Shown here piece by piece: positions 2,331 through 18,747 of a DNA stretch of 64,000 nt (position 1 is the first letter of the stretch; every line of letters begins with the position of its first letter). This DNA is from a virus. The position numbers and the translations under genes are program-made. The DNA lies in IMG/VR virus record IMGVR_UViG_3300014720_000019, positions 1 through 64,000 of that record. The stretch is one strand, 5' to 3'. The notes beneath the pieces were generated by a model that was not told where the DNA came from, searched no databases, and saw nothing but the letters and a program-made list of their open reading frames with translations.

Positions 2331-2352
2331 AAAAGGGGCCAATTAAGGCCCC
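2331..2352 (-). terminator. Terminator of the 1403-aa polymerase gene
   Basis: On the minus strand GGGGCC, a 6-nt loop, GGCCCC, then TTTTATT, nine bases past the stop codon at 2361. It belongs to the GGCCC-TTTTATT series found between the minus-strand genes. Confidence 0.8.
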
Positions 2353-2360
2353 AGTTATTA

Positions 2361-5300
2361 CTAGATAGAAGCTAATAAGACTTTATTAGCTTGCATCATA
2401 AAGTTGATGCCATTTCTATACATCTTATTCATCCAGCCATCTTGAGGAAGAAGCTTAGTATGATATTCATGCTTAGAAACAAGCTTCAAACAAGACATAT
2501 ATTCAGTGAACTCATCACCCTCTTCAACACTGATCAACTCAAGACCAGTAGAAGGATCAAAGCCTCTACCCATATGTCTAAACATACCAATCATTGCAAT
2601 TCTGCAAAGCTTAAAGTCATCCACCTTCTCAATCTGTTCAATGGTCAACTCATTCCTGTCCAACTTGCCATAACGCATTCTATAGTAGTTAAAGTCACAG
2701 ATGATCTCCATAACTTGCTGCCAATCAGAATCCTTAGTAGGCAAGTCTAATGCATCAAGCATATATTCAATAGCATCATATAGAACAACATTCTTGTCAT
2801 CCTTCACAGCAATTCTAGGAAGAATAGAACCATCTTCAGCCTTAGCATATGCATACAACGGACCGTTAGGAACCTTATCATACATAACAAGGCTAGCAGC
2901 TCTCAACACTTCAAAGAACTCAGCAGCTTTAGCACTATAGCCAGATAGACCAAGACCTTCATAGATCAAAGTCCAAATGACTAAAATAGCCTTCTCCAAT
3001 AAGTCCATTCTAGTAAAAGACTCATCATAAGACTTAACAGCAGCCCAGCAAGTAATAGCACTTGCAATACCATAGCCAGTACCAACAGAGTACATGTAGT
3101 GATTACTAGTCTTAACATGAATACCCGCTAGCCCAACATGACCATACTCAGTGTTAAATGCAAACTCCTCAACATCCTCATGAGGCAAGAAAGAAGCATA
3201 AGCAAACCCAGCAGGTCTAATCAATTTCTTCTTAGCAGGAGACTCAATAAAGTCACTGAAGGGCAGCTTAGAACTGGCATAAACAGTCTTATAACCAGTG
3301 AGACCTACAATAGACTTGTTAGCAGCAATAGCATCAGCAATAGTCAACCCTCTAATAGAACAGTTGATCAAGCCAATACCATCACCATCAGAGTCACCGC
3401 TATTACCTTGAGCCCAAATACAAGGAAGAATACCAACATGACTTGGTTCAATCTCATTAGTAATAACAAGCTTACACATAGCTGGCATAAACATAGGAAT
3501 CCGTACAGCAGCAACAATAGTACCATTAAGCAAAGAAGGATCAAAGTACTTAACCTCATAGCCTTCTGCTTTCAAGTTCTTAGTGCTAACTTCAATGCAA
3601 TGCTCGGGCATTACAAAGTTAGTCTTGTAATCATCCTTGTTGTCAAAGTACTTAGTAACAAGATACTTCTCATTCCAAGTCTTATCAGCATTCTTAGCCA
3701 ACAACTTAGCCATACCACAGTCAGGATTGACCAAAGCTTTAGGCAACCCATCAGTATCAGGAATCAAAGACAAGTTGTACACAGTTCTAACCTTGCCGTT
3801 GACAAGACACTTAGAACTTCTAGACAACTTCTTAATAATACCCTTGCTTTGTAGACCAGCAATCAACCAGCCCCTTAAGCTATTAGAAAGCTTAAGAACA
3901 GTAGCGTTAATCTTACTGTCAATACCACTAATGCCTATGGTTCTAACGGGATCAGCAAAGAATCTAATAGCGCCTACAATCTCTTGAGAGATTTGATCAG
4001 CAGTACCACCGATAAAGGTCATGGTCTTATTAACTGTAGACCAATCAATGAGCAACTTAGAGTTGTTAGATTGACCATTAGAAGTGATCATCAGACCATC
4101 AGGAAAGATCTTTGCCATAATATTACAAACTTGTCTATCGTCCTTACCGTTGAGATTAGGAATGATAGCTTGAAATGCCTTCAATTGTTCAGTGTCTTGA
4201 GCATTAAAGACATAGGTCTCATCATAGATCTCATAACTAGCCATGTCTAATAGACCTTGCAAAGCTTGTCTAATAGGTAAGGCTTCAGAGTATAAAGCCT
4301 CTACAAGCTTAGGACTAATCAATGACATACCCGCCATCATCTCAGGAGTAAGATTAGACTCGCCAACAGACTCATCAGCAGTAGAAATCTCAAAGTTCAA
4401 TGGCATATAACCAACAAGAACTTCAATGTCTTCTTCCACAACAACAGCACCCTTGCCAAGGTCTTCAACAAGCCGCCACTTAAAGTCAAATCCATTGCCA
4501 GTATTAACATCATAACCAGCAGAAATAGCAGACTCCAGAGCAAATTCATAGTGCGTTTTAGGCATAGTAACTTGCACTTTCATCTTCTCAGTAGTCTTAT
4601 TAACCCATTCAGATACAACGTTCTTGGGATTCATCAAGTCAGACTTCTTGACCTTACCATTGTTGTAAGTAATCACCATTCTACAACCATCATTATCACC
4701 TTCAACAATAGCAGTTTTGATGCTTGCATTAGAATTAGCAAACATTACAAGTTCTGCAACATTGCCCTTTCTAGTCTCATTGTTGTAAATGATATCAGCA
4801 GGATAGCCAACCTCATTACCATTAGCATCAAACCACTTGTAGTTAGGAGAAACAACCGTAGTAGCTTTGAGGCCAGCAGTTCTGAACTTAGCAAATTGGA
4901 CTTGCTTTACAGCCTTCACCTTCAATTGAATCTTGCAGTGACTAGGGCGATAACCATTCTTGCTCATCTTAGGAGGCTTAACCTTGTAACCAGTTACAAT
5001 AAAGAACTGATTATGAGTGTTGTTAGTAAACAATGGCTTGATGTTGCCACTACCATAATCAAACACAGCAATAGTCTCGCCAGGGCCAAACACCTTGTCT
5101 TGAGGAATAGCTTCCAATACATTCTCAATGTCATTCAAGAACATAAAGAAGTTAGCATGGTCTTTAGTAATACCAGAGTTGTACTTCTCCCACACTTCAC
5201 CAGTACAATCATTGAAGTTAATCAACGTAGGAATAGACTTGTCTAAGCCATAGTAAGCAGCATACTCAGGATTCATAACAGCAACACCACTGCCACTAGA

Positions 5301-6572
5301 GATGCTACCATCAGTCAATGCAATCTTGACCATCTGACCTTCCATCATACATGCCTTACCAGTAGACATGATCTTAGTGCCAAACTTAGATTCAACCCTA
5401 GTAGAAGATAGAGTACCATCAGGATTAGTCTGACACAAATCAGAGCCTTGATATTTGAAAGACTGAGTGATTCTATTCAACATCTTGGCACCAACTTCAA
5501 TGACCTTAGTCTTCTTGTTGGCTTTAGCACCAGTATCATTGATGGTAAATTGACCCTTCTGAGTCTTAGTAGATCCATCCTTGCTCTTATAAGAAACAGT
5601 ACCACCAAAGATACCACAAGCATTAGCAGCATCATCATTGTATACAGTCTTAGAACCAACCTTATCCATAAGAATAGTGTTGCCCCATTCAACTTTAGCA
5701 GTCTTGATCTTGCCGTTGGTCATAGCATAGAAGGGAAAGCCCATGATTTGTCTGCCAGGATTATACATAAACTTTACACCCTTAGCTTGGCCCTTCTTCA
5801 AGTACTTGTTGCTATCATTGGCAACAACACCATAGTTCTGCTCTTCATCCCACAAAGCAGGAATAGAGTTGATGATACCTTCACCCTTCCATAGACCATC
5901 ATGACCAAGCTTTACAATCTCAGCACCTAGCAAGAACAGGAAGCCAGAAGTACCAACAGTTATTGCATCAATGGCAACTCGCTTAGTAGCTTGTTTAGTA
6001 GTATTACCAACCGTAAATTCACCAGTTGCAAAGTCAAGTTCCAAACCACCATAGTTAGCAGCATATGTGACTTTAGTACCTTCCAACTCGATACCATAGC
6101 TCAAATAGCTAAACATCTTAGCTAGAACATCTGGAGACAGAGCAGATAGTTTAGCAGCTACTTGAGCCATAACAAAGTTAGGAAGATCATCATGCTTAAC
6201 AGCAAGAACACCTTCCAAGTCTTCAACAGACGCATCTACAAAGTAGACAAGATCATCTTCAAGGAGATCATGATAAGACATATCTTCAATAGGAAGATAA
6301 CCATCAGATGTAGTCATGCTACCAAATCCTTTAACCACACCTGAAGCTGCCATCACACAACCACAAGCATGAAGATAAGTCAACAGAGGACTTACATTAA
6401 GCTTAGAAGGACCTGAGGGTAATACATAGTTGAGTTCTTGAGTCTCAATTGCAAGGCTAATGTTTTCAGAGGCAAGGTAGTTAGCTAGATCAATGTGAAG
6501 ATCATTGTCTTCATCAACTTGGAAGTTGAGAAGGAATGATAGAGTTGCTTCAAGGCCTTTTAGATTGGACAT
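2361..6572 (-). CDS. Single-chain DxDGD RNA polymerase (QDE-1 / crAss gp66-type catalytic barrel)
   Basis: A 1403-aa protein. Residues 1060-1064 read DSDGD inside GNSGDSDGDGIGLI. Upstream lies VRIPMFMPAMCKLVI, followed by an acidic strand and PCIWAQ. This order (an R-x-P-x-x-x-P segment, then a DxDGD loop about 35 residues later) is the signature of the catalytic double-psi beta-barrel in eukaryotic RNAi polymerases (QDE-1/RDR) and related phage polymerases such as crAss-like gp66 and YonO, where the three Asp bind catalytic magnesium. It is probably a DNA-dependent RNA polymerase for phage genes. It has its own leader and terminator. The N-terminal 1000 residues are not recognised. I did not see the second barrel directly, so the family call rests on the catalytic motif and its spacing. 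Confidence 0.68.
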   Translation of the reverse strand: MSNLKGLEATLSFLLNFQVDEDNDLHIDLANYLASENISLAIETQELNYVLPSGPSKLNVSPLLTYLHACGCVMAASGVVKGFGSMTTSDGYLPIEDMSYHDLLEDDLVYFVDASVEDLEGVLAVKHDDLPNFVMAQVAAKLSALSPDVLAKMFSYLSYGIELEGTKVTYAANYGGLELDFATGEFTVGNTTKQATKRVAIDAITVGTSGFLFLLGAEIVKLGHDGLWKGEGIINSIPALWDEEQNYGVVANDSNKYLKKGQAKGVKFMYNPGRQIMGFPFYAMTNGKIKTAKVEWGNTILMDKVGSKTVYNDDAANACGIFGGTVSYKSKDGSTKTQKGQFTINDTGAKANKKTKVIEVGAKMLNRITQSFKYQGSDLCQTNPDGTLSSTRVESKFGTKIMSTGKACMMEGQMVKIALTDGSISSGSGVAVMNPEYAAYYGLDKSIPTLINFNDCTGEVWEKYNSGITKDHANFFMFLNDIENVLEAIPQDKVFGPGETIAVFDYGSGNIKPLFTNNTHNQFFIVTGYKVKPPKMSKNGYRPSHCKIQLKVKAVKQVQFAKFRTAGLKATTVVSPNYKWFDANGNEVGYPADIIYNNETRKGNVAELVMFANSNASIKTAIVEGDNDGCRMVITYNNGKVKKSDLMNPKNVVSEWVNKTTEKMKVQVTMPKTHYEFALESAISAGYDVNTGNGFDFKWRLVEDLGKGAVVVEEDIEVLVGYMPLNFEISTADESVGESNLTPEMMAGMSLISPKLVEALYSEALPIRQALQGLLDMASYEIYDETYVFNAQDTEQLKAFQAIIPNLNGKDDRQVCNIMAKIFPDGLMITSNGQSNNSKLLIDWSTVNKTMTFIGGTADQISQEIVGAIRFFADPVRTIGISGIDSKINATVLKLSNSLRGWLIAGLQSKGIIKKLSRSSKCLVNGKVRTVYNLSLIPDTDGLPKALVNPDCGMAKLLAKNADKTWNEKYLVTKYFDNKDDYKTNFVMPEHCIEVSTKNLKAEGYEVKYFDPSLLNGTIVAAVRIPMFMPAMCKLVITNEIEPSHVGILPCIWAQGNSGDSDGDGIGLINCSIRGLTIADAIAANKSIVGLTGYKTVYASSKLPFSDFIESPAKKKLIRPAGFAYASFLPHEDVEEFAFNTEYGHVGLAGIHVKTSNHYMYSVGTGYGIASAITCWAAVKSYDESFTRMDLLEKAILVIWTLIYEGLGLSGYSAKAAEFFEVLRAASLVMYDKVPNGPLYAYAKAEDGSILPRIAVKDDKNVVLYDAIEYMLDALDLPTKDSDWQQVMEIICDFNYYRMRYGKLDRNELTIEQIEKVDDFKLCRIAMIGMFRHMGRGFDPSTGLELISVEEGDEFTEYMSCLKLVSKHEYHTKLLPQDGWMNKMYRNGINFMMQANKVLLASI

Positions 6573-6624
6573 AATAGTTGATAGTGAGTTTGCTTAATGT
6601 TTATTGTACTTACATAAGTACAAT
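6573..6624 (-). promoter_or_regulatory. Leader of the polymerase gene with AACTCACT motif and hairpin
   Basis: AACTCACT (plus-strand agtgagtt at 6583-6590) ends ten bases before the ATG. A 9-bp stem with a 4-nt loop lies upstream (6603-6611/6616-6624). Here the motif is outside the stem, unlike in most sister leaders, and there is no clear Shine-Dalgarno. Confidence 0.6.
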
Positions 6625-6651
6625 AAAAGGGGCTTTATTGCCCCTTTTATT
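6622..6651 (-). terminator. Terminator of the gene at 6661-7842
   Basis: Perfect inverted repeat 6622-6633/6640-6651 with AAAAGGGGC and GCCCCTTTT arms; T tracts on both strands, so it could work in both directions. Confidence 0.85.
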
Positions 6652-6660
6652 AATCAGCTA

Positions 6661-7842
6661 CTAAACCATAGAAGACCTTCTAGGAGAAGATGCTTTAGGC
6701 TCATCAACAGTAGTCTCAACAGACTGTTGTTGTACTGTTGTCTTAGCAGTGTTAACTGCACCTGCCATACCCTTAATGTTGATAACATCATTAGTGTACT
6801 CAACATCAGAATACTTGTCTTGCATATCCATTAGATATGCCTTGCAAGTTAATAAAGACCAGCCAGGGAACTGAGTAGATTTAGCAAGCTCTTGAAGTTT
6901 AGCTTCAACAAACTTGTTCCACTTGCCAGCTTCCAGTTCAGCTTCAAATGCAGTTTTGGCATTAGCAACCGCTTTATTACCAAACTGATTCTTAGCCTCG
7001 ACCTGCTTCTTCATACCATCAACAGAACCAGTGCCATTGATCTTCTTCTGTAGATTAATAACAGAAGAAACAGAAGAAGAGAAACTGCTAACTGCAATCT
7101 CATTCTTGTACTTAGGTGTGTAGAAAACACCTTCATTCCAAGTAGCTGCAACAACAACAGTTTCAAAGAAACGACCATAGACAGGTTCACCATCTTTAGG
7201 CTTTAACACCTCAACAATATCACTGCACTTAGCAGTGCCATTAGGGTTAGCGCTGAGAACAAAGAAGATGCTCAAGCTTTTAACTTGACCAGCAAGAGTC
7301 TTAGCACCCAACTGTTGAACAAAAGACTTGTCCCAATGAGCACAGTTAAACTCAAATACAATCTCACCACCAACATTATTGTCAGCAGCAATTGCTTGCC
7401 AAGCTTCAAAGTCAATATTCTCATTGACAACAACAGACTGCATAAGAGCCTTCTTAGCAGTGTCATTCAGCATTGGCAAGCGCTGTTGCAACTCTGCCAA
7501 TTCATCATCCTCACAATCTACCAACTTGTAGACAGTAGTAGTACCTTCAGTGATGTATTTAGGCTCACCATCCTTCAAAGTGTAACCCATTGGCATGAAC
7601 TTCATGAAAGCACGATCACCTTCATTAGTAGAAGTAAAAGCACCACCAATGGTCTTCAATGCAGATTTAGGACCAAATGCAACCTTCTGAGAGAAGTTTA
7701 CATTGACAGAATAGACTTTATGACCATTCAGCACAGCTTCATAGACCTCGTCCATTGAACCAAAGTTCAAAGACTTCTTAGGCTTAGAAGTAGCCTTGGT
7801 TTCAGACGCGTTATTAGAAGCAGCCTTGTTAAATAAAGACAT
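6661..7842 (-). CDS. Hypothetical protein, 393 aa
   Basis: No family recognised. The N-terminus is a Ser/Thr/Lys-rich linker (about residues 1-25), followed by an apparently globular domain. The C-terminal 30 residues are Thr/Gln-rich and end in PRRSSMV. Start and stop are clear: CGGAG lies eight to nine bases before the ATG. It is transcribed towards, and sits just upstream of, the polymerase gene, but a terminator and a new leader separate them, so the two are probably separate units under a common signal. A polymerase-associated or DNA-binding role is possible but unsupported. Confidence 0.82.
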   Translation of the reverse strand: MSLFNKAASNNASETKATSKPKKSLNFGSMDEVYEAVLNGHKVYSVNVNFSQKVAFGPKSALKTIGGAFTSTNEGDRAFMKFMPMGYTLKDGEPKYITEGTTTVYKLVDCEDDELAELQQRLPMLNDTAKKALMQSVVVNENIDFEAWQAIAADNNVGGEIVFEFNCAHWDKSFVQQLGAKTLAGQVKSLSIFFVLSANPNGTAKCSDIVEVLKPKDGEPVYGRFFETVVVAATWNEGVFYTPKYKNEIAVSSFSSSVSSVINLQKKINGTGSVDGMKKQVEAKNQFGNKAVANAKTAFEAELEAGKWNKFVEAKLQELAKSTQFPGWSLLTCKAYLMDMQDKYSDVEYTNDVINIKGMAGAVNTAKTTVQQQSVETTVDEPKASSPRRSSMV

Positions 7843-7905
7843 AATAATATTCTCCGTTGGCCCTTTTGTTTAATAAAGTGAGTTTTGGGCCTAAATAAAA
7901 GGGCC
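7843..7905 (-). promoter_or_regulatory. Repeated leader: 5-bp stem with AACTCACT loop
   Basis: Stem GGCCC/GGGCC at 7859-7863/7887-7891 encloses AACTCACT (plus 7877-7884). CGGAG lies between the stem and the ATG. This leader is of the class with the ribosome site downstream of the stem. Confidence 0.6.
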
Positions 7906-7923
7906 AGACACGGCCCTTTTATT
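7894..7923 (-). terminator. Terminator of the gene at 8062-9498
   Basis: Perfect 12-bp inverted repeat, 7894-7905/7912-7923, arms AATAAAAGGGCC and GGCCCTTTTATT, 6-nt loop. T tracts on both strands. Confidence 0.85.
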
Positions 7924-7926
7924 ATA

Positions 7927-7967
7927 ATTGATTACTATAAACTCAGGGAGTATTTATAGTAATCAAT
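7927..7967. other. Strong 15-bp hairpin next to the terminator
   Basis: Perfect inverted repeat 7927-7941/7953-7967 with an 11-nt loop, just 5' (minus sense) of the terminator at 7894-7923 and just after the stop of the frameshifted extension of the gene at 8062-9498. Two adjacent hairpins at one 3' end are unusual here; it may protect the transcript. Confidence 0.6.
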
Positions 7968-8061
7968 AATGTATTAGTCTATTGAAGATGTTTAGGAATA
8001 ATAAGCTTATTCTGTTTACAGAAGGTATAAAGATCAACTTTATCACCATTTACTGTCCACT

Positions 8062-9498
8062 TTAAACCTTCTTCTTAAGTACAGGTTTAGCAGCAACCTT
8101 TAAGTACTTAAAGCCGTTAGGGTCATCTGCTATATAATTGATATAGGGATTATTAGCGCCCTTTCTACCCCCATAATTCCTCAAGAAGAAAATACCTTTA
8201 ACTTTAGGAAGTTTGCCCTCCTCTTCAATTAAAGTTAGACCTGCCTTTTTAGCAGCTTCTATATAGGGAGCATACTTAGTAAGACTCTCTGCTAACACCG
8301 CAGCTTGTCTCTCCTTTTCAGCTTTATTCCTAGCAGCAATGTCAGCCTTCTTCTTAGCTTCTGCTTCTTTAGCTTTCCTATTCTTATCAAGACAAGATTG
8401 AATCTCCTGTCTAATAAGATTAAGATTATAAGCATCATCTACTGGCATATAGAAATACACATTATCCCCATATTCATCCTTATAAGATGCCAAGTATTTA
8501 CCTTGAGTATACTTCCAACTATCAAAAGTAACTCCTAATGAGTTGGCCACAGAATGAGCCCAATTATCACATTGGTGTTCCATTCTGTATAGCCAAGGAA
8601 TATACTCTGTAGCTTTTGGGTTCTCAGAATTATATAGAATTATATCTTTATAATTCTCCTTAACCCAAGCATCAAGAGTATAAACACTAACAGCATATTT
8701 ATACTCTTGATTATACTGTTTATAGAAGTGATAATCATTAAAAACCTCTAACTTTAACTTGTTGATATAAGCTTCAGCCTTTTCAAGACTATCAACAATA
8801 AAAGTTGTATCTTTATTGATTACAGATCCATCTTTTAACTTCAAGACCTTCTTTTGAAAAGTCTTAATATAAGTTTCACTAAAGCTTGTAAAAGCGTCAG
8901 CAAAACCATCCCCAGATGAACCTCCATATTTTTCAGTAACTTTACAGGAGGAAGGAGTATCAATACATAATATTGCTCCACTAAAGTGCTCATCAACTAT
9001 AGCTTGATAATCCTTCCATACTTGAGGATACCAGTCTTTATCAAGCATTATCTCTTTAGCCTGAGCAATTAAAGCCGCTTTAGTATCAGCTTCATCTTTA
9101 ATAGCTTTCAACCTCAAAGCTTCAGCCTCTTCTTTGGCTTTAATAGCAGCTTGCTTCTCCTGCTCTTCTTTATATAGAGCATCAACAAGAGACTTATCTT
9201 CAACGTATGTCTGCCACACCAATTCAGACTCATGTTGAAGAAACCACTCTTCAAACCTTATATTCTCCTCATCTTCATCAAAGAAGAACCAACCATACTC
9301 ATCAGAGTCATAGGCTGTATGCTCTAAATGTGAAGGTATATTAGCATAGATGCTACCATCTTCTAGCTTATATAGAGTATAAGTACCCACATCAATCATT
9401 GTTTTGAGTGCTTTATTAGCATCTTTAACAATGATACTTGCTTGTTGCCATTCACCCTCAACAGTGATATAGCAAGTTACATTTTTGATATTAATCAT
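8062..9498 (-). CDS. Coiled-coil protein of unknown function, possibly -1 frameshifted at its 3' end
   Basis: 478 aa from the ATG at 9498, chosen because GGAG lies nine bases upstream; a longer reading from a TTG at 9552 is less likely. Two Lys/Glu/Ala-rich segments (about residues 110-150 and 375-415) look like coiled coils. The rest is aromatic-rich and probably folded. The reading frame ends at AAG AAG AAG GTT TAA. In the -1 frame it would continue for 27 codons to TAG at 7979 (KWTVNGDKVDLYTFCKQNK and on), which looks like real coding sequence. Either programmed slippage or a recent indel could explain this. It is co-transcribed with the gene upstream (9589-10956), as no terminator separates them. 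Confidence 0.72.
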   Translation of the reverse strand: MINIKNVTCYITVEGEWQQASIIVKDANKALKTMIDVGTYTLYKLEDGSIYANIPSHLEHTAYDSDEYGWFFFDEDEENIRFEEWFLQHESELVWQTYVEDKSLVDALYKEEQEKQAAIKAKEEAEALRLKAIKDEADTKAALIAQAKEIMLDKDWYPQVWKDYQAIVDEHFSGAILCIDTPSSCKVTEKYGGSSGDGFADAFTSFSETYIKTFQKKVLKLKDGSVINKDTTFIVDSLEKAEAYINKLKLEVFNDYHFYKQYNQEYKYAVSVYTLDAWVKENYKDIILYNSENPKATEYIPWLYRMEHQCDNWAHSVANSLGVTFDSWKYTQGKYLASYKDEYGDNVYFYMPVDDAYNLNLIRQEIQSCLDKNRKAKEAEAKKKADIAARNKAEKERQAAVLAESLTKYAPYIEAAKKAGLTLIEEEGKLPKVKGIFFLRNYGGRKGANNPYINYIADDPNGFKYLKVAAKPVLKKKV

Positions 9499-9588
9499 AG
9501 AATTAATCTCCATAAACTTAGGTTCTAATATAGTAGTAATACTATCTATCAAAGTACTAATAACTATACTATTATTATCTATAATCTA

Positions 9589-10956
9589 TTATGACAATTG
9601 GCCTTCAAAGTTAGAGATCTCAGTGTTAAGATCTCTAATAGCCAACATAATGTCATGGTTAGACATGCCAGAAGCTCTCTTAGCAAGAGGAGTCTTTAGC
9701 TCTTCTTTGTACTTCTTAATAGCATCTTTAAAGCCATTAATAGTACGTCTTACTTGAGCCTTCTTATCAGCCTTTACAGACTCAATGTAAGACATAACAG
9801 CTTCTAGCTCTCTCTTAAAGACAGCATAGAACTTCCTAGTAGCTCTTAAAGCCTCTTCATACTTACCAGCGTCATAGAGCGCTTGGCAGTTATCAACTAA
9901 CTGCTTGTAAGTGTTGAAGTGGGCTTTATGATTGCTATTTAAATCACCACCTTCTTGTAAGAATGCTTCCACATCTCTTACAACTTGTTTGGCATTAGCC
10001 AAGTACTTAGCAGTTTCCTGCTTAGCCTTGTTAGCCTTTGCCCTAGCTAGATCTGCTTGCTTCTTAGCCTGCTCAGCTTTATAGAGCTCAACAGCCTTAG
10101 CAGCACGTTCTGCCTTAGCCTTTGCTTCAGCCTCTTCAGCTAGTTTAGCAGCAACAATAGCTGCTTGTTTAGCTGCTTCTGCTTCAGCCTTGGCAGTTGC
10201 CAACATAGTAGTAACGTTACTACTATCAAAGGGAAGTGCTAACTCGTCTAGCACTTCTTGTAACAAGACTGGCTTAGCAGCTTCAAAGCCACTAGCCAAG
10301 TCCCTCTCATAGACTTGAACTTCTTGGTCTGCCCAAGCATTCAAGTCTTGATTTACCTGAGCCTTAATAGACTCAAACTCATCAACAACTACACTAATAG
10401 TTGCTTTGAGTTCTGCTTTATATGACTCATACTGAGCCACATAAGCAGCATGAATCTCACTCTTTCTCTCAAAGATGAGATCAGCAACAGCCCCCTTCTG
10501 TTGCTCATAGAAGGTCTTATACATAGCCTTCTTCAAAGCATCTTTCAATGCCTTATTACTATCATCAACAACAGTATTAATGATAGGATCTACAGCCTTG
10601 TTAGGCTTAGGAGCAAACTGGTCAGCTTTGGTGCCAGTATTGCCCTTAACAACAGGCTTAGTGTTAACAGAAGGAGCGACCTTCTTTGCAGCTCTAGGCT
10701 TTTGTACAAACTTTTGGGCATTATCCCAAGTTGGTTCCACCAAGTCTGTAGGGATTAAACCTACAAAGACTAAAAGTGCAATCTTCTTAGCTTGAACAGC
10801 CTTGAAGACTGACTTAGCCTTCTTAGCTTTAGCAGACTTGTTAGCAGTCTTAGCTGCTTGTTTAGCAGCTTTAGCAAGACGTGCAGCATTGGCCTTAGCC
10901 TTTTCTGCTTCAGACATACGATTTCCAACTTGACCAGCCTTCTTAATTTTAGCCAT
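9589..10956 (-). CDS. Ala/Lys-rich coiled-coil protein, possibly nucleic-acid-associated
   Basis: 455 aa from the ATG at 10956 (a TTG at 10965 is also in frame). The first 55 residues are almost entirely Ala, Lys and Asn, like the basic tails of histone H1-like or TolA-like proteins. Residues 255-325 form a long Ala/Lys/Glu helix rich in AEAKAKAERAAK-type repeats. The C-terminal 120 residues look helical. A short hydrophobic stretch (IALLVFVGLIP) at about residue 60 is too short to be a firm membrane segment. No family recognised; it could organise DNA or be a virion-internal protein. It shares a transcript with the gene at 8062-9498. Confidence 0.75.
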   Translation of the reverse strand: MAKIKKAGQVGNRMSEAEKAKANAARLAKAAKQAAKTANKSAKAKKAKSVFKAVQAKKIALLVFVGLIPTDLVEPTWDNAQKFVQKPRAAKKVAPSVNTKPVVKGNTGTKADQFAPKPNKAVDPIINTVVDDSNKALKDALKKAMYKTFYEQQKGAVADLIFERKSEIHAAYVAQYESYKAELKATISVVVDEFESIKAQVNQDLNAWADQEVQVYERDLASGFEAAKPVLLQEVLDELALPFDSSNVTTMLATAKAEAEAAKQAAIVAAKLAEEAEAKAKAERAAKAVELYKAEQAKKQADLARAKANKAKQETAKYLANAKQVVRDVEAFLQEGGDLNSNHKAHFNTYKQLVDNCQALYDAGKYEEALRATRKFYAVFKRELEAVMSYIESVKADKKAQVRRTINGFKDAIKKYKEELKTPLAKRASGMSNHDIMLAIRDLNTEISNFEGQLS

Positions 10957-11020
10957 GATACTCAAATACCCCTGTATTATATAAGTGAGTTGTTAGGGGT
11001 CTCCTAAATAAAAGGGCCAG
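10957..11020 (-). promoter_or_regulatory. Repeated leader, Shine-Dalgarno upstream of the stem
   Basis: AGGAG (plus ctcct at 11001-11005) directly abuts the 6-bp stem 10968-10973/10995-11000, whose loop holds AACTCACT (plus 10984-10991). Eleven bases separate the stem from the ATG. With the stem folded, AGGAG would stand 11 nt from the start. A weaker AGGGG in the 3' arm could also serve. Confidence 0.65.
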
Positions 11021-11113
11021 ACAAGACCCTTCTAAGTAGTTATTATTTATACTAGTTGTAACATCTCCAGCTATATTATTCAATTTGTATGTGGTAAACA
11101 ACATCTTATAAAC

Positions 11114-11354
11114 TTAACTATAAGAATGTGCAGTCTCGCAGCACACATGGTTATTGTTATTGATGATATAAGGATCAACAGCCACAGATTCAAAGTAGGT
11201 ATAACCCACATTACCTTTAAGGAAAAAGCAATATAACCCCTCTAATTGTTCTCTTCTTGAGGATGAAGGAGAGCCACATTATTGCCCTGTCATCTACTTG
11301 TGTTGGGTCTATCAGTCTCTTAGATGCATTGCACTGATCTGTCACACCATACAC
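11114..11354 (-). pseudogene. Small gene interrupted by a +1 shift
   Basis: Two abutting minus-strand frames make one plausible protein: from a GTG at 11354, MYGVTDQCNASKRLIDPT then DDRAIMWLSFILKK; then, one frame over, EQLEGLYCFFLKGNVGYTYF and VAVDPYIINNNNH, ending at TAA at 11114. Neither half alone looks complete. The join lies in an A/G-rich AAGAAGAGAA stretch. It may be a broken gene or a translational frameshift. No family recognised. Confidence 0.42.
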
Positions 11355-11557
11355 ACTAAAAGGGCCTGCTAGTTAATAGCAAGTAGTAGATGCAATAAGA
11401 GGTAACTCTCATTGTTGTAGTATTCAGTCTTCTTTATACTCATATATAGTCCTACTAGCTTCTACCAGTAACAAGCGGTTAACCTGTTAAAGTACTAATG
11501 TAGATAGCATCCATATATGGGTCCTGCCTATTATCATGTGCAGTTTATATCTTGTTA
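11355..11557. other. Intergenic stretch, possible 24-aa ORF
   Basis: No recognised gene. A 24-codon minus-strand ORF, 11369-11443, starts MSIKKTEYYNNES and has AGGA six bases upstream; its stop overlaps a small hairpin (minus GCTATTAACTAGC). I did not see a tRNA. Confidence 0.3.
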
Positions 11558-11589
11558 ATAAAAAGGGCCATAGGATAGGCCCTTTTTAT
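11558..11589 (-). terminator. Terminator of the gene at 11595-12011
   Basis: Perfect 12-bp inverted repeat 11558-11569/11578-11589 with AAAAAGGGCC / GGCCCTTTTT arms, just past the stop codon. Confidence 0.85.
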
Positions 11590-11594
11590 ATTAT

Positions 11595-12011
11595 TTAATC
11601 ATAGTCAGAGTAATCAAACTCCTCCTCTTCTTCTTCCTCAACCAAAGGAGGTGGTGAGATTTTCCATTTATTAGAGTCCTTATAAATAGACTCCATACCC
11701 AGAAGAGCCGCCCAATCTTTTCTCCTATCAGTATAGTGATCCTTTGAAAAGATATCACACTGAACAGAGAATCCAAGATTAAGTATATCTTGGATAATAC
11801 CTCTAGTTGCTCTAAAAGCAGAGAGGATAGTACTCTTGCTTGGACTGGTAGAGTCATCTTTATAATAACTCTCTTTATACTTGACACTGAGAGTCATTGT
11901 ACCCTCATTTACAATATAAACATGAAGATCTTCATGCTTATATACAGTATATACAGCTTTATAATCAAAGCTGTAAGAATTTAAAGCAGAAAGGAATTCT
12001 TGATAAGACAT
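11595..12011 (-). CDS. Hypothetical protein with acidic C-terminus, 138 aa
   Basis: No family recognised. The first 115 residues look globular with many Tyr and Lys. The last 18 are strikingly acidic (VEEEEEEEFDYSDYD), as in single-stranded-DNA-binding proteins, where an acidic tail recruits partners, and in DNA-mimic proteins. Either reading is speculation. The ATG at 12011 has only a weak TAGG nearby. It has its own terminator and a degenerate copy of the repeated leader. Confidence 0.75.
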   Translation of the reverse strand: MSYQEFLSALNSYSFDYKAVYTVYKHEDLHVYIVNEGTMTLSVKYKESYYKDDSTSPSKSTILSAFRATRGIIQDILNLGFSVQCDIFSKDHYTDRRKDWAALLGMESIYKDSNKWKISPPPLVEEEEEEEFDYSDYD

Positions 12012-12061
12012 AGTTATTTACCTAGCACTTGTGAATTTAATTTTGTGCCAAATAAAAGGGC
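12012..12061 (-). promoter_or_regulatory. Degenerate repeated leader
   Basis: Weak 4-bp stem GCAC/GTGC (12025-12028/12045-12048); the loop reads AAATTCACAA, distantly like AACTCACT. A GGCCCTTTTATT tract lies upstream and TAGGTAAAT downstream, as in the 14086-14133 leader. Confidence 0.4.
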
Positions 12062-12205
12062 CTGTCATGCCATAAAATTGTTTTAAATAAATAAACATAG
12101 GGATAGGGAGCAAAGATCTCCCTTAGATGTAAGCGGGCCCCCAGCTCTACAAATGGTGATAAATCTACTAAATAAAAGGGCCATTACTGACCCTATATAT
12201 TTAAA

Positions 12206-12274
12206 CTTCTATATCTCTTACTGGCTAGTTCATCCAGTGACTTCTATATTTTAATTGGCTCATCCATCCAATAA
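12206..12274. repeat. Tandem pair of covarying hairpins
   Basis: Two imperfect tandem copies of about 35 bp (12206-12240, 12241-12274), each starting cttctatat. Each holds a 5-bp stem with a 9-nt loop: ACTGG/CCAGT at 12220-12224/12234-12238 and ATTGG/CCAAT at 12254-12258/12268-12272. The arms differ by a compensatory C-G to T-A change. They lie in the 3' region of the minus-strand gene at 12288-12764. Confidence 0.65.
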
Positions 12275-12287
12275 CAAAGCAAAAGAA

Positions 12288-12764
12288 CTACTTAATCTTC
12301 TTGTTAGCAAGAAGTCTAGCAATTCTCTCCTTAGCAGCTTTTGCAGCCAGGTGAGAAGATAGTGCAGCATCAAGATGAGACTGTTTAGTAGCAGCCACTT
12401 GATCTGCAAGAAGACCTTCTGCTTCCATAGTAGAAACAAGAGACTCAATTGCTTGAGCCTTTTGCTCTACAAGATTAGCAGCATATGCTGCGTCTTGTGC
12501 CATGAAAGCAAAGGTTTGCACCTCAGCTTTAGCAGAGTTGTACTGGTGATTGACAACAGCCTCTGTTTCCAAAAGCTCCTGATACTCATCAGACAAACCA
12601 GCATCTTCTAACAACTGATCCTCTGCATCAGCACGTTGAGCCAATAAAGCAGATCTAGCTTCTTTAGCCTCTTGTTCTGCTTTAACCTTAGCCGCCTTTT
12701 GAGCAGCTTCAGTTTGAACAGATTGAGCAGAGATGGAAGCCAAGTATTCAGTAAATAGAGACAT
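12288..12764 (-). CDS. Ala/Glu-rich helical protein, 158 aa
   Basis: No family recognised. Almost the whole protein is predicted helical from its composition: AQKAAKVKAEQEAKEARSAL early, then a Glu-rich middle, then an Ala-rich C-terminal half ending in the basic NKKIK. It has no signal peptide or membrane segment. AAGGA lies seven bases before the ATG at 12764. It resembles its neighbour at 12851-13195 in composition (short N-terminal aromatic segment, then coiled coil), so the two could be distant relatives or partners. Its own leader and the hairpin pair downstream suggest a monocistronic message. Confidence 0.78.
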   Translation of the reverse strand: MSLFTEYLASISAQSVQTEAAQKAAKVKAEQEAKEARSALLAQRADAEDQLLEDAGLSDEYQELLETEAVVNHQYNSAKAEVQTFAFMAQDAAYAANLVEQKAQAIESLVSTMEAEGLLADQVAATKQSHLDAALSSHLAAKAAKERIARLLANKKIK

Positions 12765-12822
12765 GATAGTTTCCTTAACCTAGAACTAATTAGTGAGTTA
12801 TCTAGGATAAGTAAAAGGGCCA
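12765..12822 (-). promoter_or_regulatory. Repeated leader: 6-bp stem with AACTCACT loop
   Basis: Stem CCTAGA/TCTAGG (plus 12779-12784/12801-12806), 16-nt loop holding AACTCACT (plus 12792-12799). AAGGA (plus tcctt 12772-12776) lies between stem and ATG; no AGGAG upstream of the stem. Confidence 0.65.
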
Positions 12823-12850
12823 AATTAATGACCCAATTACTTAAAGAAGA

Positions 12851-13195
12851 TTAAGGATTATTCTTCTTGTTTTTTGCTTGTCTAGCAAGTCTTACAGCAG
12901 CAACAGCAGCTTTAGGATCTGCCATCATGCTGTTAAACACAGCAAAGTTCTTATCTGCTTCCTCAGCAAGATCCTCTGCATCAGCAAGATCTTCAGCAAT
13001 CTTAATTGCCATAGATGTTGCATCAAAAGCAGCAGCTTCAGAGTTAAGCTGTTTAATCAAAGCAACCTTTTTAGCTACTTCTTTCATACGCTCAACTTCT
13101 GAAGCTCTAGCCTTAGCTTCAGCCAACAATTGATCCTCATAAGAGACCTCAACTGTTGCTTTAGCTGCTGGGAACAACCAACTAAACCAAGACAT
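12851..13195 (-). CDS. Small Ala-rich helical protein, 114 aa
   Basis: No family recognised. It starts with an aromatic MSWFSWLFPAAK segment that could touch membrane or another protein. A long charged helix follows (AEAKARASEVERMKEVAKK; IAEDLADAEDLAEEADK), and it ends in a basic RQAKNKKNNP. AAGGA six bases before the ATG supports the start. It has the same general design as the gene at 12288-12764, immediately downstream. Confidence 0.76.
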   Translation of the reverse strand: MSWFSWLFPAAKATVEVSYEDQLLAEAKARASEVERMKEVAKKVALIKQLNSEAAAFDATSMAIKIAEDLADAEDLAEEADKNFAVFNSMMADPKAAVAAVRLARQAKNKKNNP

Positions 13196-13250
13196 AGATT
13201 ATCCTTTCCCTAGTACTGAATGACTTATACCTAGGATAAATAAAAGGGCC
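13196..13250 (-). promoter_or_regulatory. Repeated leader, divergent loop
   Basis: Stem CCTAG/CTAGG (plus 13209-13213/13231-13235), 17-nt loop with AAGTCATT in place of AACTCACT. AAGGA lies between stem and ATG. Upstream is the GGCCCTTTTATT tract. Confidence 0.55.
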
Positions 13251-13268
13251 AATAAAGGCCCTAATTAT

Positions 13269-13592
13269 TTAGTTAATATACTTCTTGTAAGGAGGTGGAT
13301 AACCCTCATTATAAGAATTGAAGACATCATTAAGTATATTAATATACTTAATATCAACAGAGTCAAAGTCTTGCTTAACTCTAATCATAATCTCTGAACG
13401 TAGCTCCATAAGAAGCACATAGAGATCATAAACTTGAGAGCTATTACAAGTCTTTCTACAGTAGTAATCCAACTGTACATCTGCCACTGCTACAGAGTGA
13501 TAGTTAAGTTGTCTAGCAACATATCTAAGTAGCTTGCTAGAATTAGCACACCACTCAGACATCTTTCTAGAACTCATATCAATAATAGCCAT
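13269..13592 (-). CDS. Hypothetical protein, 107 aa
   Basis: No family recognised. It is a mostly helical-looking protein with several Cys (EWCANSSK, DYYCRKTCNSS) and a Pro/Tyr-rich C-terminus (GYPPPYKKYIN). AAGGA seven bases before the ATG at 13592 supports the start. It is separated from its neighbours by leader and GGCCC-type sequences on both sides. Confidence 0.75.
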   Translation of the reverse strand: MAIIDMSSRKMSEWCANSSKLLRYVARQLNYHSVAVADVQLDYYCRKTCNSSQVYDLYVLLMELRSEIMIRVKQDFDSVDIKYINILNDVFNSYNEGYPPPYKKYIN

Positions 13593-13648
13593 GATATTTT
13601 CCTTTTACTACAGGCATAAAGGCATCCTATAGCTAAATAAAAGGGCCC
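13593..13648 (-). promoter_or_regulatory. Repeated leader with a wobble pair in its stem
   Basis: Minus-strand CTATAGG and CCTGTAG (plus 13626-13632/13608-13614) pair over 7 bp if one U-G wobble is allowed, with an 11-nt loop. The wobble would be a mismatch in DNA but not in RNA. AAGGA lies downstream of the stem. Confidence 0.5.
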
Positions 13649-13668
13649 AACTTAATGAGCCCTTTATA

Positions 13669-14085
13669 TTAGATTAGAGAGATAGGATCACCATCTGTAT
13701 CTCCTAAATTGGAATAGGTATCTCTATACCAATCATAAAGAAGATCTTGATAGGATTCTGGGTCAATATCCTGTAAATCCTCTTCAGAGAGACCAAGATC
13801 AGGATGTCCATTGATAGATATATATCTATCAATGAATAGATCAATAGAAGACTTTTTAAACTCTACATTAGAGTAGAGTCCTGCATCTAAAACATAATCC
13901 CAAATGCAGTTAACCTCAGAAGAAGCACCTACAAAGCAATAGTCCTTGTGGATCTCAAGACCCAACATAAAGAATATATCTTCATCATAAACATATCCTT
14001 CATGATAGCTACCATCAACAACAAACATGCTGTTGTCAATAGCAAAAGAAGTATTGTAAGAAACAACAACTGTATTAGAAGACAT
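13669..14085 (-). CDS. Acidic hypothetical protein, 138 aa
   Basis: No family recognised. It is strongly acidic overall, with many Asp, Glu and Tyr (YDEDIFFMLGLE; LGLSEEDLQDIDPESYQDLLYDW) and no membrane segment. Such composition is common in small early phage proteins that bind host factors or mimic DNA, but nothing here proves that. The ATG at 14085 has only a weak TAGG upstream. Confidence 0.76.
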   Translation of the reverse strand: MSSNTVVVSYNTSFAIDNSMFVVDGSYHEGYVYDEDIFFMLGLEIHKDYCFVGASSEVNCIWDYVLDAGLYSNVEFKKSSIDLFIDRYISINGHPDLGLSEEDLQDIDPESYQDLLYDWYRDTYSNLGDTDGDPISLI

Positions 14086-14133
14086 AACATTTACCTAGCC
14101 TGTATAAAGTAATTTAGGCCAAATAAAAGGGCC
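14086..14133 (-). promoter_or_regulatory. Degenerate repeated leader
   Basis: Short stem GCCT/AGGC (plus 14098-14101/14116-14119). The loop AAATTACTTTATAC closely matches the AACTCACTTTATAT of other leaders. The GGCCCTTTTATT tract lies upstream. Confidence 0.5.
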
Positions 14134-14159
14134 TATTACTAAGCCCCTAACAATATCAA

Positions 14160-14336
14160 TTACTTCTTCAATATATTCAAATAAAACCTTGCTTGACTAC
14201 CAGTTAAACCTTTATCATTCTTATGCTTATTAGCATATTGGTTAGTAGTCATACCTGCTCTTTTAGCCTTTGCAGACAAGGCACCAGGTCTTTTAATAGC
14301 CTTGTCAACATCCAATTTATTATTATCTTTAGCCAT
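14160..14336 (-). CDS. Small basic phage protein, 58 aa
   Basis: Reads MAKDNNKLDVDKAIKRPGAL, then SAKAKRAGMTTNQYANKHK, ending GSQARFYLNILKK. The pattern (DxDKAIKRPGALxAKAKxAGM, then QxARFYLNxLKK) is one I recognise from small conserved proteins of unknown function in many phages and plasmids. It is strongly basic. Start and stop are clear. No Shine-Dalgarno is visible; a 10-bp hairpin ends four bases before the ATG. Confidence 0.8.
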   Translation of the reverse strand: MAKDNNKLDVDKAIKRPGALSAKAKRAGMTTNQYANKHKNDKGLTGSQARFYLNILKK

Positions 14337-14395
14337 AGTATTACTGTATAAACATAGACAATATATACAGTAATATATGAGTTAATAAAAGGGCC
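14337..14395 (-). promoter_or_regulatory. Leader with a 10-bp hairpin
   Basis: Perfect stem 14341-14350/14364-14373 (TTACTGTATA and TATACAGTAA), 13-nt loop. AACTCATATAT lies between the GGCCCTTTTATT tract and the stem instead of in the loop. Confidence 0.5.
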
Positions 14396-14423
14396 AATTA
14401 AGACCCTTTTATATTAGAGATGA

Positions 14424-15062
14424 CTAGTCTCTTGGATAGTTTAATATCCAATCTTTGAAGAGCCGCCACTCTTCTTTATCTTTAGCAATCCAAAGGTCTA
14501 TACCTTCATCATGCTCATCATATTGTTCTAACGCACTAAAGCCAGTATCAACTAGTCTAATAGTGCATCCAACACCACTATCATGTCTTACCAACATGAT
14601 GTTATTGAATAACACATCATCAGACATGTTATTCTTCTTGACCATAGACGGCCTTCTAATGTCACCATGAGCCCAGCCACTAGCCCATAGTTCTTCTAGT
14701 TGAGACTCAGCCACATCAATAGCAGCTTCAATCTCATTCCTACTGAAGGCAGTAGGAAGACATGGATATAGTCTCTCCATAGCAATAATATATCCCACCT
14801 CCTCAATGTGGAAGTGATCCACATACTTCACTACTAAAGAATTAATCTTGTTAGCCCATTGCATAGCTAACAACTCTGCTGGGACAAAGCCATCCTTGTT
14901 AGTTTCCCAGCAAACTAACAATTCATTATCAAAGTCATCTTGTGACAGAGACTTAATAACAGTATGCTCACTAAGAGCATACACGGACCCAGTAAAGCCA
15001 CTGGACAGTAATTGAGCCTCTGGAAACTCAGAAGCAATAACAGTCTTAATAGAAATACCCAT
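14424..15062 (-). CDS. Protein-kinase-like protein, 212 aa
   Basis: The order of motifs is that of a compact protein kinase fold: glycine-rich loop GFTGSV (residues 22-27), VIK with Lys37, a helix-C-like Glu47, a hinge-like IIAMERLYP, then HGDIRR (132-134) as the catalytic loop, FNNIML with Asn154 and VDTG with Asp172 as the metal-binding DFG equivalent. The HGD form is typical of RIO, APH and lipopolysaccharide-type kinases. It probably phosphorylates host proteins, as T7 gp0.7 does, though a small-molecule kinase is possible. It has its own leader and terminator in the early-looking cluster. Confidence 0.65.
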   Translation of the reverse strand: MGISIKTVIASEFPEAQLLSSGFTGSVYALSEHTVIKSLSQDDFDNELLVCWETNKDGFVPAELLAMQWANKINSLVVKYVDHFHIEEVGYIIAMERLYPCLPTAFSRNEIEAAIDVAESQLEELWASGWAHGDIRRPSMVKKNNMSDDVLFNNIMLVRHDSGVGCTIRLVDTGFSALEQYDEHDEGIDLWIAKDKEEWRLFKDWILNYPRD

Positions 15063-15129
15063 GATATTAATACTGCTGCATTGGTAATATATAGTGAGTT
15101 ATATGCAGCACATCTCCTAATAAAAAGGG
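15063..15129 (-). promoter_or_regulatory. Repeated leader, Shine-Dalgarno upstream of an 8-bp stem
   Basis: AGGAG (plus ctcct 15114-15118) is followed by stem TGCTGCAT/ATGCAGCA (plus 15103-15110/15074-15081) enclosing AACTCACTATATA (AACTCACT at plus 15093-15100). No Shine-Dalgarno lies between the stem and the ATG; removing the stem-loop leaves 14 nt between AGGAG and ATG. Confidence 0.68.
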
Positions 15130-15149
15130 CCTATTACAGCCCTTTTATT
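15119..15149 (-). terminator. Terminator of the gene at 15151-16026
   Basis: Minus-strand AATAAAAGGGC, 8-nt loop, GCCCTTTTTATT, just past the stop codon at 15151. Confidence 0.8.
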
Positions 15150-15150
15150 A

Positions 15151-16026
15151 TTAGTTAATAAGATTATCCTCATCATCAACTAACACTAAACTATCTGGAT
15201 CTCCATACCAAATAGCAGGTTCCTCATTTTCATCAAGGAACTCAAGACAGCATTCAACTGCCTTTTGATAATAACCAGGTACAGACCTAGTTACTTCCCA
15301 CTGCTTAAGAAAGGAGGAGTATGTCAGAGGAAGATCCTCTTTATCAGAGGTAAAGATACCTCTGATATCATAGAAGGCAGTAGTACCTTCTGGTAAGAAA
15401 AGATCAGGTGGTCCCTCCCAATGTATTCTTACATCATCCAATTCACGAAAGAGATAACTGCCTAATACACTGGCAGTCCACCCATCAATTCTACCAGCAT
15501 TAAAGAGCCTATGAACTAAGCTCTCAAACTGATTTATCATCTCCTGAGAGTAGTTATACCTACCCTCGTTAGAGTGAGTGACCCTTCTAAAGAGTCTTAA
15601 CAAACTAGGTGGAATAATAGGTTCATTACCTCCCTCCCACCTAGTTCTTGTATAAGGTAGACCAGTATGAAGATATAGAATACCTTCATCTTGGTCTTCA
15701 TCTTGGGTGTCCTGACCCCAAGAACCAGTGAGATATATTTCAATCTCATTGGTCTCTTTGTATACCCTCCACTGAGTGTACTGATCAGGATGATACCCAA
15801 GTGCCAATCTTGGTTCATCCTTATACTCATCAGGAGTCTTACATCCTTCAAGCCATGTAGCTTGAGAGAACAGCTCCTGTGGCCAGTTGCACATGTGAGA
15901 ACACAATAGAGTGCCCTCCTCACCTGTCTCCTTGTCTCTTACCAAGACAAGGTTGTTAAATACATCTTCTGATGTATTAACATCAGAAGAAAGAATAACA
16001 AAGCGGCGAGTAGTAGAATTAGACAT
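15151..16026 (-). CDS. Hypothetical protein, 291 aa, with a short kinase-like N-terminal segment
   Basis: No family recognised for the whole. Residues 19-42 (EDVFNNLVLVRDKETGEEGTL) resemble the catalytic-loop strand of the neighbouring kinase-like protein (DDVLFNNIMLVRHDSG), so the two genes may share an ancestral segment, but HGD and a clear VDTG are absent. The rest is acidic and Trp-rich (WEGPPDLFLPEG; WYGDPDSLVLVDDED). It is the first gene of the minus-strand cluster, facing away from the plus-strand HTH gene. The start at 16026 has no adjacent Shine-Dalgarno; AGGAG lies upstream of the leader stem. Confidence 0.75.
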   Translation of the reverse strand: MSNSTTRRFVILSSDVNTSEDVFNNLVLVRDKETGEEGTLLCSHMCNWPQELFSQATWLEGCKTPDEYKDEPRLALGYHPDQYTQWRVYKETNEIEIYLTGSWGQDTQDEDQDEGILYLHTGLPYTRTRWEGGNEPIIPPSLLRLFRRVTHSNEGRYNYSQEMINQFESLVHRLFNAGRIDGWTASVLGSYLFRELDDVRIHWEGPPDLFLPEGTTAFYDIRGIFTSDKEDLPLTYSSFLKQWEVTRSVPGYYQKAVECCLEFLDENEEPAIWYGDPDSLVLVDDEDNLIN

Positions 16027-16085
16027 GACATTAACACAGGATTATATAAAGTGAGTTTTATCCTGTTCTCCTAATAAAAAGGGCC
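16027..16085 (-). promoter_or_regulatory. Repeated leader, Shine-Dalgarno upstream of a 7-bp stem
   Basis: AGGAG (plus ctcct 16068-16072), then stem ACAGGAT/ATCCTGT (plus 16060-16066/16036-16042) with a 17-nt loop holding AACTCACTTTATATA. Skipping the stem-loop leaves 10 nt from AGGAG to ATG. The GGCCCTTTTTATT tract is present although no gene upstream needs terminating, so the tract is part of the leader itself. Confidence 0.7.
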
Positions 16086-18718: not shown

Positions 18719-18747
18719 GGAATACACATACTTATATAAAGAACAAT

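What the first reader, a model, noticed from the sequence alone, without database searches (positions are those of the whole stretch)
6573..16085. Family of leader hairpins with variable arms and a conserved AACTCACT loop
At least six minus-strand genes (starts 16026, 15062, 12764, 10956, 7842 and 6572) have an exact AACTCACT within 35 bases of the start codon. In five of the six this lies in the loop of a stem whose arms differ between genes but always pair (ACAGGAT/ATCCTGT, TGCTGCAT/ATGCAGCA, CCTAGA/TCTAGG, ACCCCT/AGGGGT, GGCCC/GGGCC). More divergent leaders keep a stem (13195, 14085, 12011, 13592 with one U-G wobble). Different arms that all pair are compensatory change, which argues for a selected stem. 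I cannot find a matching known element, so it may be an undescribed phage leader or hairpin promoter.
Basis: partly seen in the sequence, partly recalled or inferred. Interest (0 to 1): 0.9.

Follow-up and report, generated by a model that had tools for sequence, protein, structure and literature searches.

The report
Terminator-linked hairpins at phage gene starts
In a group of viruses that infect cyanobacteria, nearly every gene in one block begins with a small RNA hairpin built from the previous gene's stop-transcription signal and the next gene's ribosome-binding site, which probably keeps leaked transcripts from being translated; the virus-wide array and the shared use of the stop signal look new, although single hairpins of this sort are known in phage T4.

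Summary
Eleven minus-strand genes (16026 to 6572) of a Ma-LMM01-like cyanophage each have an intrinsic terminator (GGCCCTTTTATT), then a stem with gene-specific arms, then ATG; six carry AACTCACT exactly 10-34 nt before ATG, five of those in the loop. Pairing is selected: a leader's own halves pair better than swapped halves (p=5e-5). The same architecture occurs in two related metagenomic phages (p=0.0015, 0.0006) and in Fukuivirus relatives (p=5e-5, not independent). One ortholog pair shows two double compensatory changes.

In Fukuiviruses the terminator tail CCUUCUAG pairs with CUAGGAGG, i.e. with the Shine-Dalgarno sequence, and an inner pair switches A-U/G-C/G-U without a break in the selected leaders.

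Best reading: RNA that reads through a terminator folds into a hairpin that closes the next ribosome-binding site, while transcripts started inside the hairpin stay open (T4 e/soc/I-TevI logic, serially arrayed). The promoter step is inferred. AACTCACT is a separate element, perhaps the phage promoter.

The parts
16036..16083 (-). Leader of gene 16026: tail CCCTTTTTATT 16083-16073, AGGAG, arms ACAGGAT 16066-16060 / ATCCTGT 16042-16036, loop with AACTCACT (16057-16050); Shine-Dalgarno-like AGGAG lies 5' of the stem
   Evidence: the terminator 5' arm is weak here
15074..15129 (-). Leader of gene 15062: arms TGCTGCAT 15110-15103 / ATGCAGCA 15081-15074, AACTCACT in loop, AGGAG 5' of stem; G006 ortholog has AACTGCAT/ATGCAGTT (two double compensatory changes)
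14339..14393 (-). Leader of gene 14336: 12-bp stem TATTACTGTATA 14375-14364 / TATACAGTAATA 14350-14339; AACTCAT lies before the 5' arm
   Evidence: (z -3.9)
14098..14131 (-). Leader of gene 14085: inner stem GCCT/AGGC, helix extends into U-tract UUUAUUUG / UAGGUAAA
13608..13645 (-). Leader of gene 13592: CTATAGG / CCTGTAG with one U-G; terminator CCUUUU also pairs with AAAAGG
13209..13248 (-). Leader of gene 13195: CCTAG / CTAGG
12779..12819 (-). Leader of gene 12764: CCTAGA / TCTAGG, AACTCACT in loop
12025..12060 (-). Leader of gene 12011: GCAC/GTGC inside a 12-bp helix UUUAUUUGGCAC / GUGCUAGGUAAA
   Evidence: (z -3.5)
10968..11016 (-). Leader of gene 10956: ACCCCT / AGGGGT, AACTCACT in loop, AGGAG 5' of stem
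7859..7903 (-). Leader of gene 7842: GGCCC / GGGCC, AACTCACT in loop
6606..6631 (-). Hairpin after the terminator upstream of the RNA polymerase gene: UUUAUUGUACUU / AAGUACAAUAAA; AACTCACT follows at 6590-6583, outside the stem
   Evidence: (z -3.3)
2328..16085 (-). Array of GGCCCTTTTATT terminator 3' halves, one per gene (16 matches with at most 1 mismatch in the window, 0.3 expected)
2361..6572 (-). RNA polymerase gene ending the block (1403 aa, GDSDGD motif; predicted fold matches RNA polymerase beta subunits); homolog of Ma-LMM01 gp064
20851..32622 (-). Giant 3923-aa protein with DFDGD; homologs in the relatives searched; candidate virion RNA polymerase (not proven)
   Evidence: the fold attempt failed

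Best explanation
Each leader is a sense-strand RNA hairpin joining the upstream gene's intrinsic terminator to the next gene's ribosome-binding site. Shown computationally: selected pairing, sense-strand bias, extension of the stem into the terminator U-tract, and inclusion of the Shine-Dalgarno sequence in many leaders. Inferred: when polymerase reads through the terminator, the tail that failed to stop it becomes the strand that closes the next ribosome-binding site, so leaked RNA is not translated; RNA begun at a promoter inside the loop (AACTCACTTTATATAAT-like in this phage, TAGTGNNCTATAAT-like in Fukuiviruses) lacks the 5' strand and is open. A minority (16026, 15062, 10956) put AGGAG 5' of the stem, which would fit a split ribosome-binding site as in T4 genes 25 and 38.
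For: Own versus swapped halves p = 5e-5 / 0.0015 / 0.0006 / 5e-5 in four phage groups. Combined sense fold z -6.3, -9.4, -3.8 against antisense -2.0, -3.8, -1.3; difference z -4.2, -5.0, -2.8. In-register extension into the U-tract, own versus swapped tails p = 0.033, 0.0044, 0.042. Fukuivirus tail::SD helix 94.6% paired over 35 leaders, inner pair AU 24 / GC 10 / GU 1 with none broken, many C-G to U-G changes; mean outward extension 4.5 bp versus 2.6 with shuffled tails. SD unpaired probability 0.14/0.29/0.31 in long RNA versus 0.41/0.48/0.41 in RNA starting 24 nt before ATG. Loops 4-10% G but 18-28% C. Precedents: T4 e, soc, 49, I-TevI (PMC3014915, PMC2988022).
Against: No transcript ends are known, so neither read-through RNA nor a promoter in the loop has been seen. 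In 6572, G006-18840 and G006-20222 the hairpin leaves the start codon region free. The AGGAG-before-stem class would be opened, not closed, by the stem. TATAAT-like loops exceed shuffles only in the Fukuivirus set, whose members are related. In Ma-LMM01 the RNA-seq early class is gp054-gp063 and does not include the hairpin genes gp064-gp067 (PMC5780444), so 'early' cannot be asserted for this block. Part of the tail::SD complementarity follows from a pyrimidine tail facing a purine SD.
Confidence: 0.5

Rival explanations
1. Translational operator: the hairpin presents a conserved loop (AACTCACT) to a phage or host RNA-binding protein that switches translation of the whole block, like the T4 gp43 operator with a conserved loop and less constrained stem.
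For: Arms vary while the loop is shared by five genes; sense-strand RNA structure; loops G-poor and open; G006 loops keep AACTCA(C/T).
Against: Loop sequence is not shared by 14336, 13592 or most G008 and Fukuivirus leaders although the stem is; AACTCAC also occurs outside stems (6572, G006 18840, 11885, 12589).
Confidence: 0.17
2. mRNA 5' or 3' end protection: tandem hairpins between genes stabilise each message or mark processing sites in a polycistronic RNA, without controlling initiation.
For: Terminator and second hairpin lie in tandem between almost all genes; in 6572, G006-18840 and G006-20222 the second hairpin does not reach the ribosome-binding site.
Against: Most stems reach into the Shine-Dalgarno sequence, and the outer strand complements it specifically in Fukuiviruses.
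Confidence: 0.15
3. DNA hairpin promoter for a virion RNA polymerase, as in phage N4.
For: The phage encodes an RNA polymerase next to the array and a giant DxDGD protein; AT-rich motif between arms; terminators leave little room for another promoter.
Against: N4 uses a template-strand hairpin with a 3-base loop (PMC4496689); here sense folding is favoured over antisense, loops are mostly 11-23 nt in the window, many stems end 2-15 nt from ATG, and the U-tract is part of the stem. The two-barrel (DxDGD) polymerase is unrelated to the N4 enzyme.
Confidence: 0.08
4. No single function: AT-rich spacer with terminators and ribosome-binding sites whose pyrimidine/purine complementarity gives helices by composition.
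For: The tail::SD complementarity is partly built in; some leaders (13195, 16026) are not below shuffles in RNA fold energy.
Against: Swap tests within genomes, ortholog compensatory pairs, and the AU/GC/GU switch; controls elsewhere in the same genomes near zero.
Confidence: 0.05

Closest known systems
T4-type inhibitory hairpins at translation starts (genes e, soc, 49, I-TevI)
   Same: Sense RNA helix over SD/AUG; 5' strand upstream; in T4 a promoter overlaps the 5' strand so that only long transcripts are closed (PMC3014915, PMC2988022)
   Different: T4 cases are single genes with late promoters; here up to a dozen or more consecutive genes, the 5' strand is the tail of an intrinsic terminator, and the internal promoter is unproven
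T4 genes 25 and 38 split ribosome-binding sites
   Same: Hairpin between SD and AUG (16026, 15062, 10956, G006-21924, G008-35282)
   Different: Effective spacing here would be about 10-17 nt, longer than the 5-11 nt in T4; not tested
Phage N4 virion RNA polymerase hairpin promoters
   Same: Variable arms that always pair upstream of phage genes; phage-encoded polymerase
   Different: Template strand, 5-7 bp stem, 3-base loop, T7-like enzyme in N4; here sense-strand RNA signature, long loops, two-barrel polymerase
Thermus phage P23-45 polymerase pair
   Same: Large DxDxD protein plus a second two-barrel RNA polymerase; block-restricted AT-rich promoter motif and terminators (PMC10770324)
   Different: No hairpins mentioned there (the term does not occur in the paper's text); no sequence-level link tested here

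Membership tests
T4-type RBS-occluding leader hairpin | SD and/or AUG lies in a sense-strand helix of the long transcript | tested here: met
   Met for most leaders by prediction; not for 6572, G006-18840, G006-25403
T4-type RBS-occluding leader hairpin | A promoter overlaps or follows the 5' strand, so short transcripts are open | tested here: inconclusive
   TATAAT-like loops above shuffle only in Fukuiviruses; no TSS data
T4-type RBS-occluding leader hairpin | Translation of long RNA is repressed by the helix | not testable with these tools
   needs reporters or ribosome profiling
N4 hairpin promoter | Structure on the template strand | tested here: not met
   sense favoured over antisense; changed pairs via G-U on the sense strand
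N4 hairpin promoter | Stem of 5-7 bp with 3-base loop | tested here: not met
   window loops 4-23 nt; only some G008 and Fukuivirus leaders have 3-nt loops, around the SD
T4 gene 25/38 split RBS | SD 5' of a hairpin, none between hairpin and AUG | tested here: met
   16026, 15062, 10956, G006-21924, G008-35282; spacing longer than in T4
Intrinsic terminator | GC-rich hairpin followed by a U-tract at gene ends | tested here: met
   33 terminator-like sites versus 11.5 +/- 4 in shuffles at 1-20000
Any Rfam family | Covariance-model match | tested here: not met
   only one sub-threshold match, unrelated
Multisubunit-type (two-barrel) RNA polymerase, gene 2361-6572 | DxDGD metal motif and polymerase fold | tested here: met
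   invariant GDxDGD in 8 homologs; the PDB matches listed are nearly all bacterial beta subunits, the rest vaccinia polymerase (E 8e-5, prob 1.00; low TM-score, model pLDDT 57)

The most novel reading that the evidence does not exclude
Terminators double as translation locks: across a family of cyanophages the pyrimidine tail of each intrinsic terminator is also the anti-Shine-Dalgarno strand for the next gene, so a polymerase that fails to stop automatically silences translation of what it transcribes next, and each gene of the block is expressed only from its own internal phage promoter.
Probability: 0.4. Interest if true: 0.78.

Novelty: new variant of a known kind. Interest (0 to 1): 0.6.

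Why it matters
RNA helices that hide ribosome-binding sites from long transcripts are known for a few T4 genes. A serial array, with the terminator tail used as the closing strand, would be a compact way to insulate adjacent genes both at transcription and at translation. It is maintained across distant phages by pairing rather than by sequence, and is directly testable in cultured Microcystis phages. It also bears on how Ma-LMM01-like phages run their programme: published work concluded that only host sigma-70 promoters are used (PMC5780444), yet these phages carry an RNA polymerase gene beside the array.

Tried and rejected
Close relatives by megablast, by peptides of the 1403- and 393-aa proteins and in GTDB contigs: none; relatives came through the capsid protein and an RNA polymerase profile. 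DNA-pattern scan for terminator plus AACTCAC gave one unrelated tRNA-rich contig. PDB and Pfam sequence searches for the polymerase: nothing; the fold search succeeded. Profile comparison between the small polymerase and the giant protein: no match; fold of the giant failed (pLDDT 37). Internal-mismatch counting on the three metagenomic phages alone is suggestive but small (G-T 4, A-C 1). Host promoters as a general explanation of the loops: TATAAT-like content not above shuffles in the window, G006 or G008. A 16-base match between the 6572 leader and the leader of Ma-LMM01 early gene gp063 was found post hoc and is left as a lead. G013 leaders have pairing arms around the terminator tail but were not analysed statistically.
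Full report
WHAT IS THERE. The window is part of a 107,115-base virus record. Its capsid protein is 43% and its tail sheath 33% identical to those of Microcystis phage Ma-LMM01 (Fukuivirus), so it is a distant myovirus relative of the freshwater cyanophages. On the minus strand from 16026 down to 6572, eleven genes repeat one layout: terminator hairpin ending in GGCCCTTTTATT, a second stem with gene-specific arms, then ATG. The terminator half is confined to this block (16 matches with at most one mismatch versus 0.3 expected, all between 2328 and 15149). AACTCACT occurs exactly in six leaders, 10-34 nt before ATG; 0.009 would be expected. In five it is in the loop. In 14336 a one-letter variant, AACTCAT, is before the 5' arm, and in 6572 the motif is after the stem, so motif and stem are separate elements.

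IS THE STEM SELECTED? The swap test avoids picking arms by eye: the 5' half of each leader is tested against the 3' half of every leader of the same genome. Own halves give longer stems: 6.0 versus 4.3 bp (p 5e-5). The same test on relatives gives 5.3 versus 4.2 (G006, p 0.0015), 4.7 versus 3.9 (G008, p 0.0006) and 4.2 versus 3.6 (57 Fukuivirus leaders, p 5e-5, not independent). G006 is a metagenomic phage with the homologous block (RNA polymerase 29-33% identical, kinase-like gene 53%). The orthologous leaders 15062 and G006-21924 share the inner six pairs, and differ at the two outer ones as T-A to A-T and G-C to A-T, both double changes that keep pairing. Control leaders elsewhere in the two genomes fold like shuffles (mean z -0.48, n=28; -0.13, n=15), the block does not (combined z -6.3 and -9.4).

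RNA OR DNA? Folding the sense strand and its complement separately against the same shuffles gives combined z of -6.3/-2.0 (window), -9.4/-3.8 (G006) and -3.8/-1.3 (G008); the sense-minus-antisense difference is -4.2, -5.0, -2.8. The asymmetry comes from G-U pairs, which a template-strand DNA hairpin would see as C-A mismatches. Loops are poor in G (4-10%) but not in C (18-28%). Many stems end 2-15 nt from ATG and include the Shine-Dalgarno sequence. Phage N4 promoters, the obvious hairpin promoters, are template-strand with a 3-base loop (PMC4496689). The hairpin-promoter reading is therefore disfavoured, though a non-template single-strand structure cannot be formally excluded.

RNA folding showed that stems run outward into the upstream terminator's U-tract: for 12011 UUUAUUUGGCAC pairs with GUGCUAGGUAAA, for G006-24879 and G008-38084 helices of 12-15 bp result. 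Extension in register is greater with a leader's own downstream tail than with swapped tails (p 0.033, 0.0044, 0.042 with no mismatch). In Fukuiviruses the terminator tail reads CCUUCUAG or CCUUCUGG and faces CUAGGAGG or CCAGGAGG: an eight-pair helix over the Shine-Dalgarno sequence. On 35 distinct leaders 94.6% of cells pair; the inner pair is A-U 24, G-C 10, G-U 1, none broken; several outer pairs change C-G to U-G. The leaders were selected for having CT[AG]G and C[CT]AG, but the association of A with U and G with C was not imposed. The sequences are related, so these counts are not independent events.

HOW IT MOST LIKELY WORKS. Because the U-tract is part of the selected structure, the RNA in which the hairpin matters contains the terminator tail, i.e. 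it is read-through RNA (inference). Predicted Shine-Dalgarno accessibility is low in that RNA and higher in RNA that starts 24 nt before ATG (0.14 to 0.41, 0.29 to 0.48, 0.31 to 0.41). This is the logic of T4 genes e, soc, 49 and I-TevI, where long transcripts fold shut and transcripts from a promoter within the 5' strand stay open (PMC3014915, PMC2988022). A promoter in or near the loop is then required; AACTCACT plus the following TATATAAT-like stretch is the candidate here and TAGTGNNCTATAAT in Fukuiviruses, but this step has no direct evidence. Five leaders (16026, 15062, 10956, G006-21924, G008-35282) have AGGAG before the stem and none after it; these resemble T4 split ribosome-binding sites, where a hairpin shortens the SD-AUG distance, and they do not fit the lock.

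CONTEXT. The block ends in a 1403-aa protein homologous to Ma-LMM01 gp064. It has an invariant GDxDGD, and its predicted fold (mean pLDDT 57) matches mainly RNA polymerase beta subunits (PDB, E 8e-5) and, after its Microcystis phage homolog, several viral RNA polymerase subunits. A 3923-aa giant with DFDGD has homologs in the relatives searched. Together they recall phage P23-45 (PMC10770324), where a virion polymerase transcribes a block that includes the second polymerase gene; that role is not shown here. In Ma-LMM01 the RNA-seq early class is gp054-gp063 (PMC5780444), so the hairpin genes gp064-gp067 are not in it, and I do not call the block early.

VERDICT. Real, selected, sense-strand RNA, conserved as an architecture across Ma-LMM01-like cyanophages, and not found in Rfam or in the papers searched. 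Function as a read-through lock is the best-supported mechanism at about even odds. It works like known T4 elements but differs in being arrayed and in using the terminator tail as the closing strand.

Noticed in passing
window 2361-6572 (-): RNA polymerase-like protein (DxDGD, beta-subunit fold match) in a phage group whose published transcriptome paper infers only host sigma-70 promoters.
   Followed up: partly
window 20851-32622 (-): 3923-aa giant protein with DFDGD, with homologs in the relatives searched (DYDGD and DWDGD variants); candidate virion RNA polymerase.
   Followed up: partly
L012:15649 (Ma-LMM01 gp063 leader) and window 6590-6573: ACTCACTATYAACTATT shared by the leader of an RNA-seq early gene of Ma-LMM01 and the polymerase leader here, although the genomes share little DNA similarity; possible early promoter.
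   Followed up: partly
L071 (G013): leaders at record positions 23337, 25010; L070: 13366, 12164: Arms that flank the terminator tail, the 5' arm lying in the terminator loop (possible H-type pseudoknots), again with different arms per gene.
   Followed up: no
L072 (G008): genes 31242-34383: Short hairpins NCCTaggAGGN that hold the Shine-Dalgarno sequence, with outer pairs that vary and still match.
   Followed up: partly
window 14424-15062 (-): Kinase-like 212-aa protein (GWAHGDIR...NN motif), 53-55% identical in G006.
   Followed up: no
window 11000-11590 (-): About 500 bases without a clear gene but with terminator halves at both ends; perhaps gene remnants or an RNA.
   Followed up: no
window 43571-44479 (-): GIY-YIG-like homing endonuclease gene directly after the capsid gene.
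   Followed up: no
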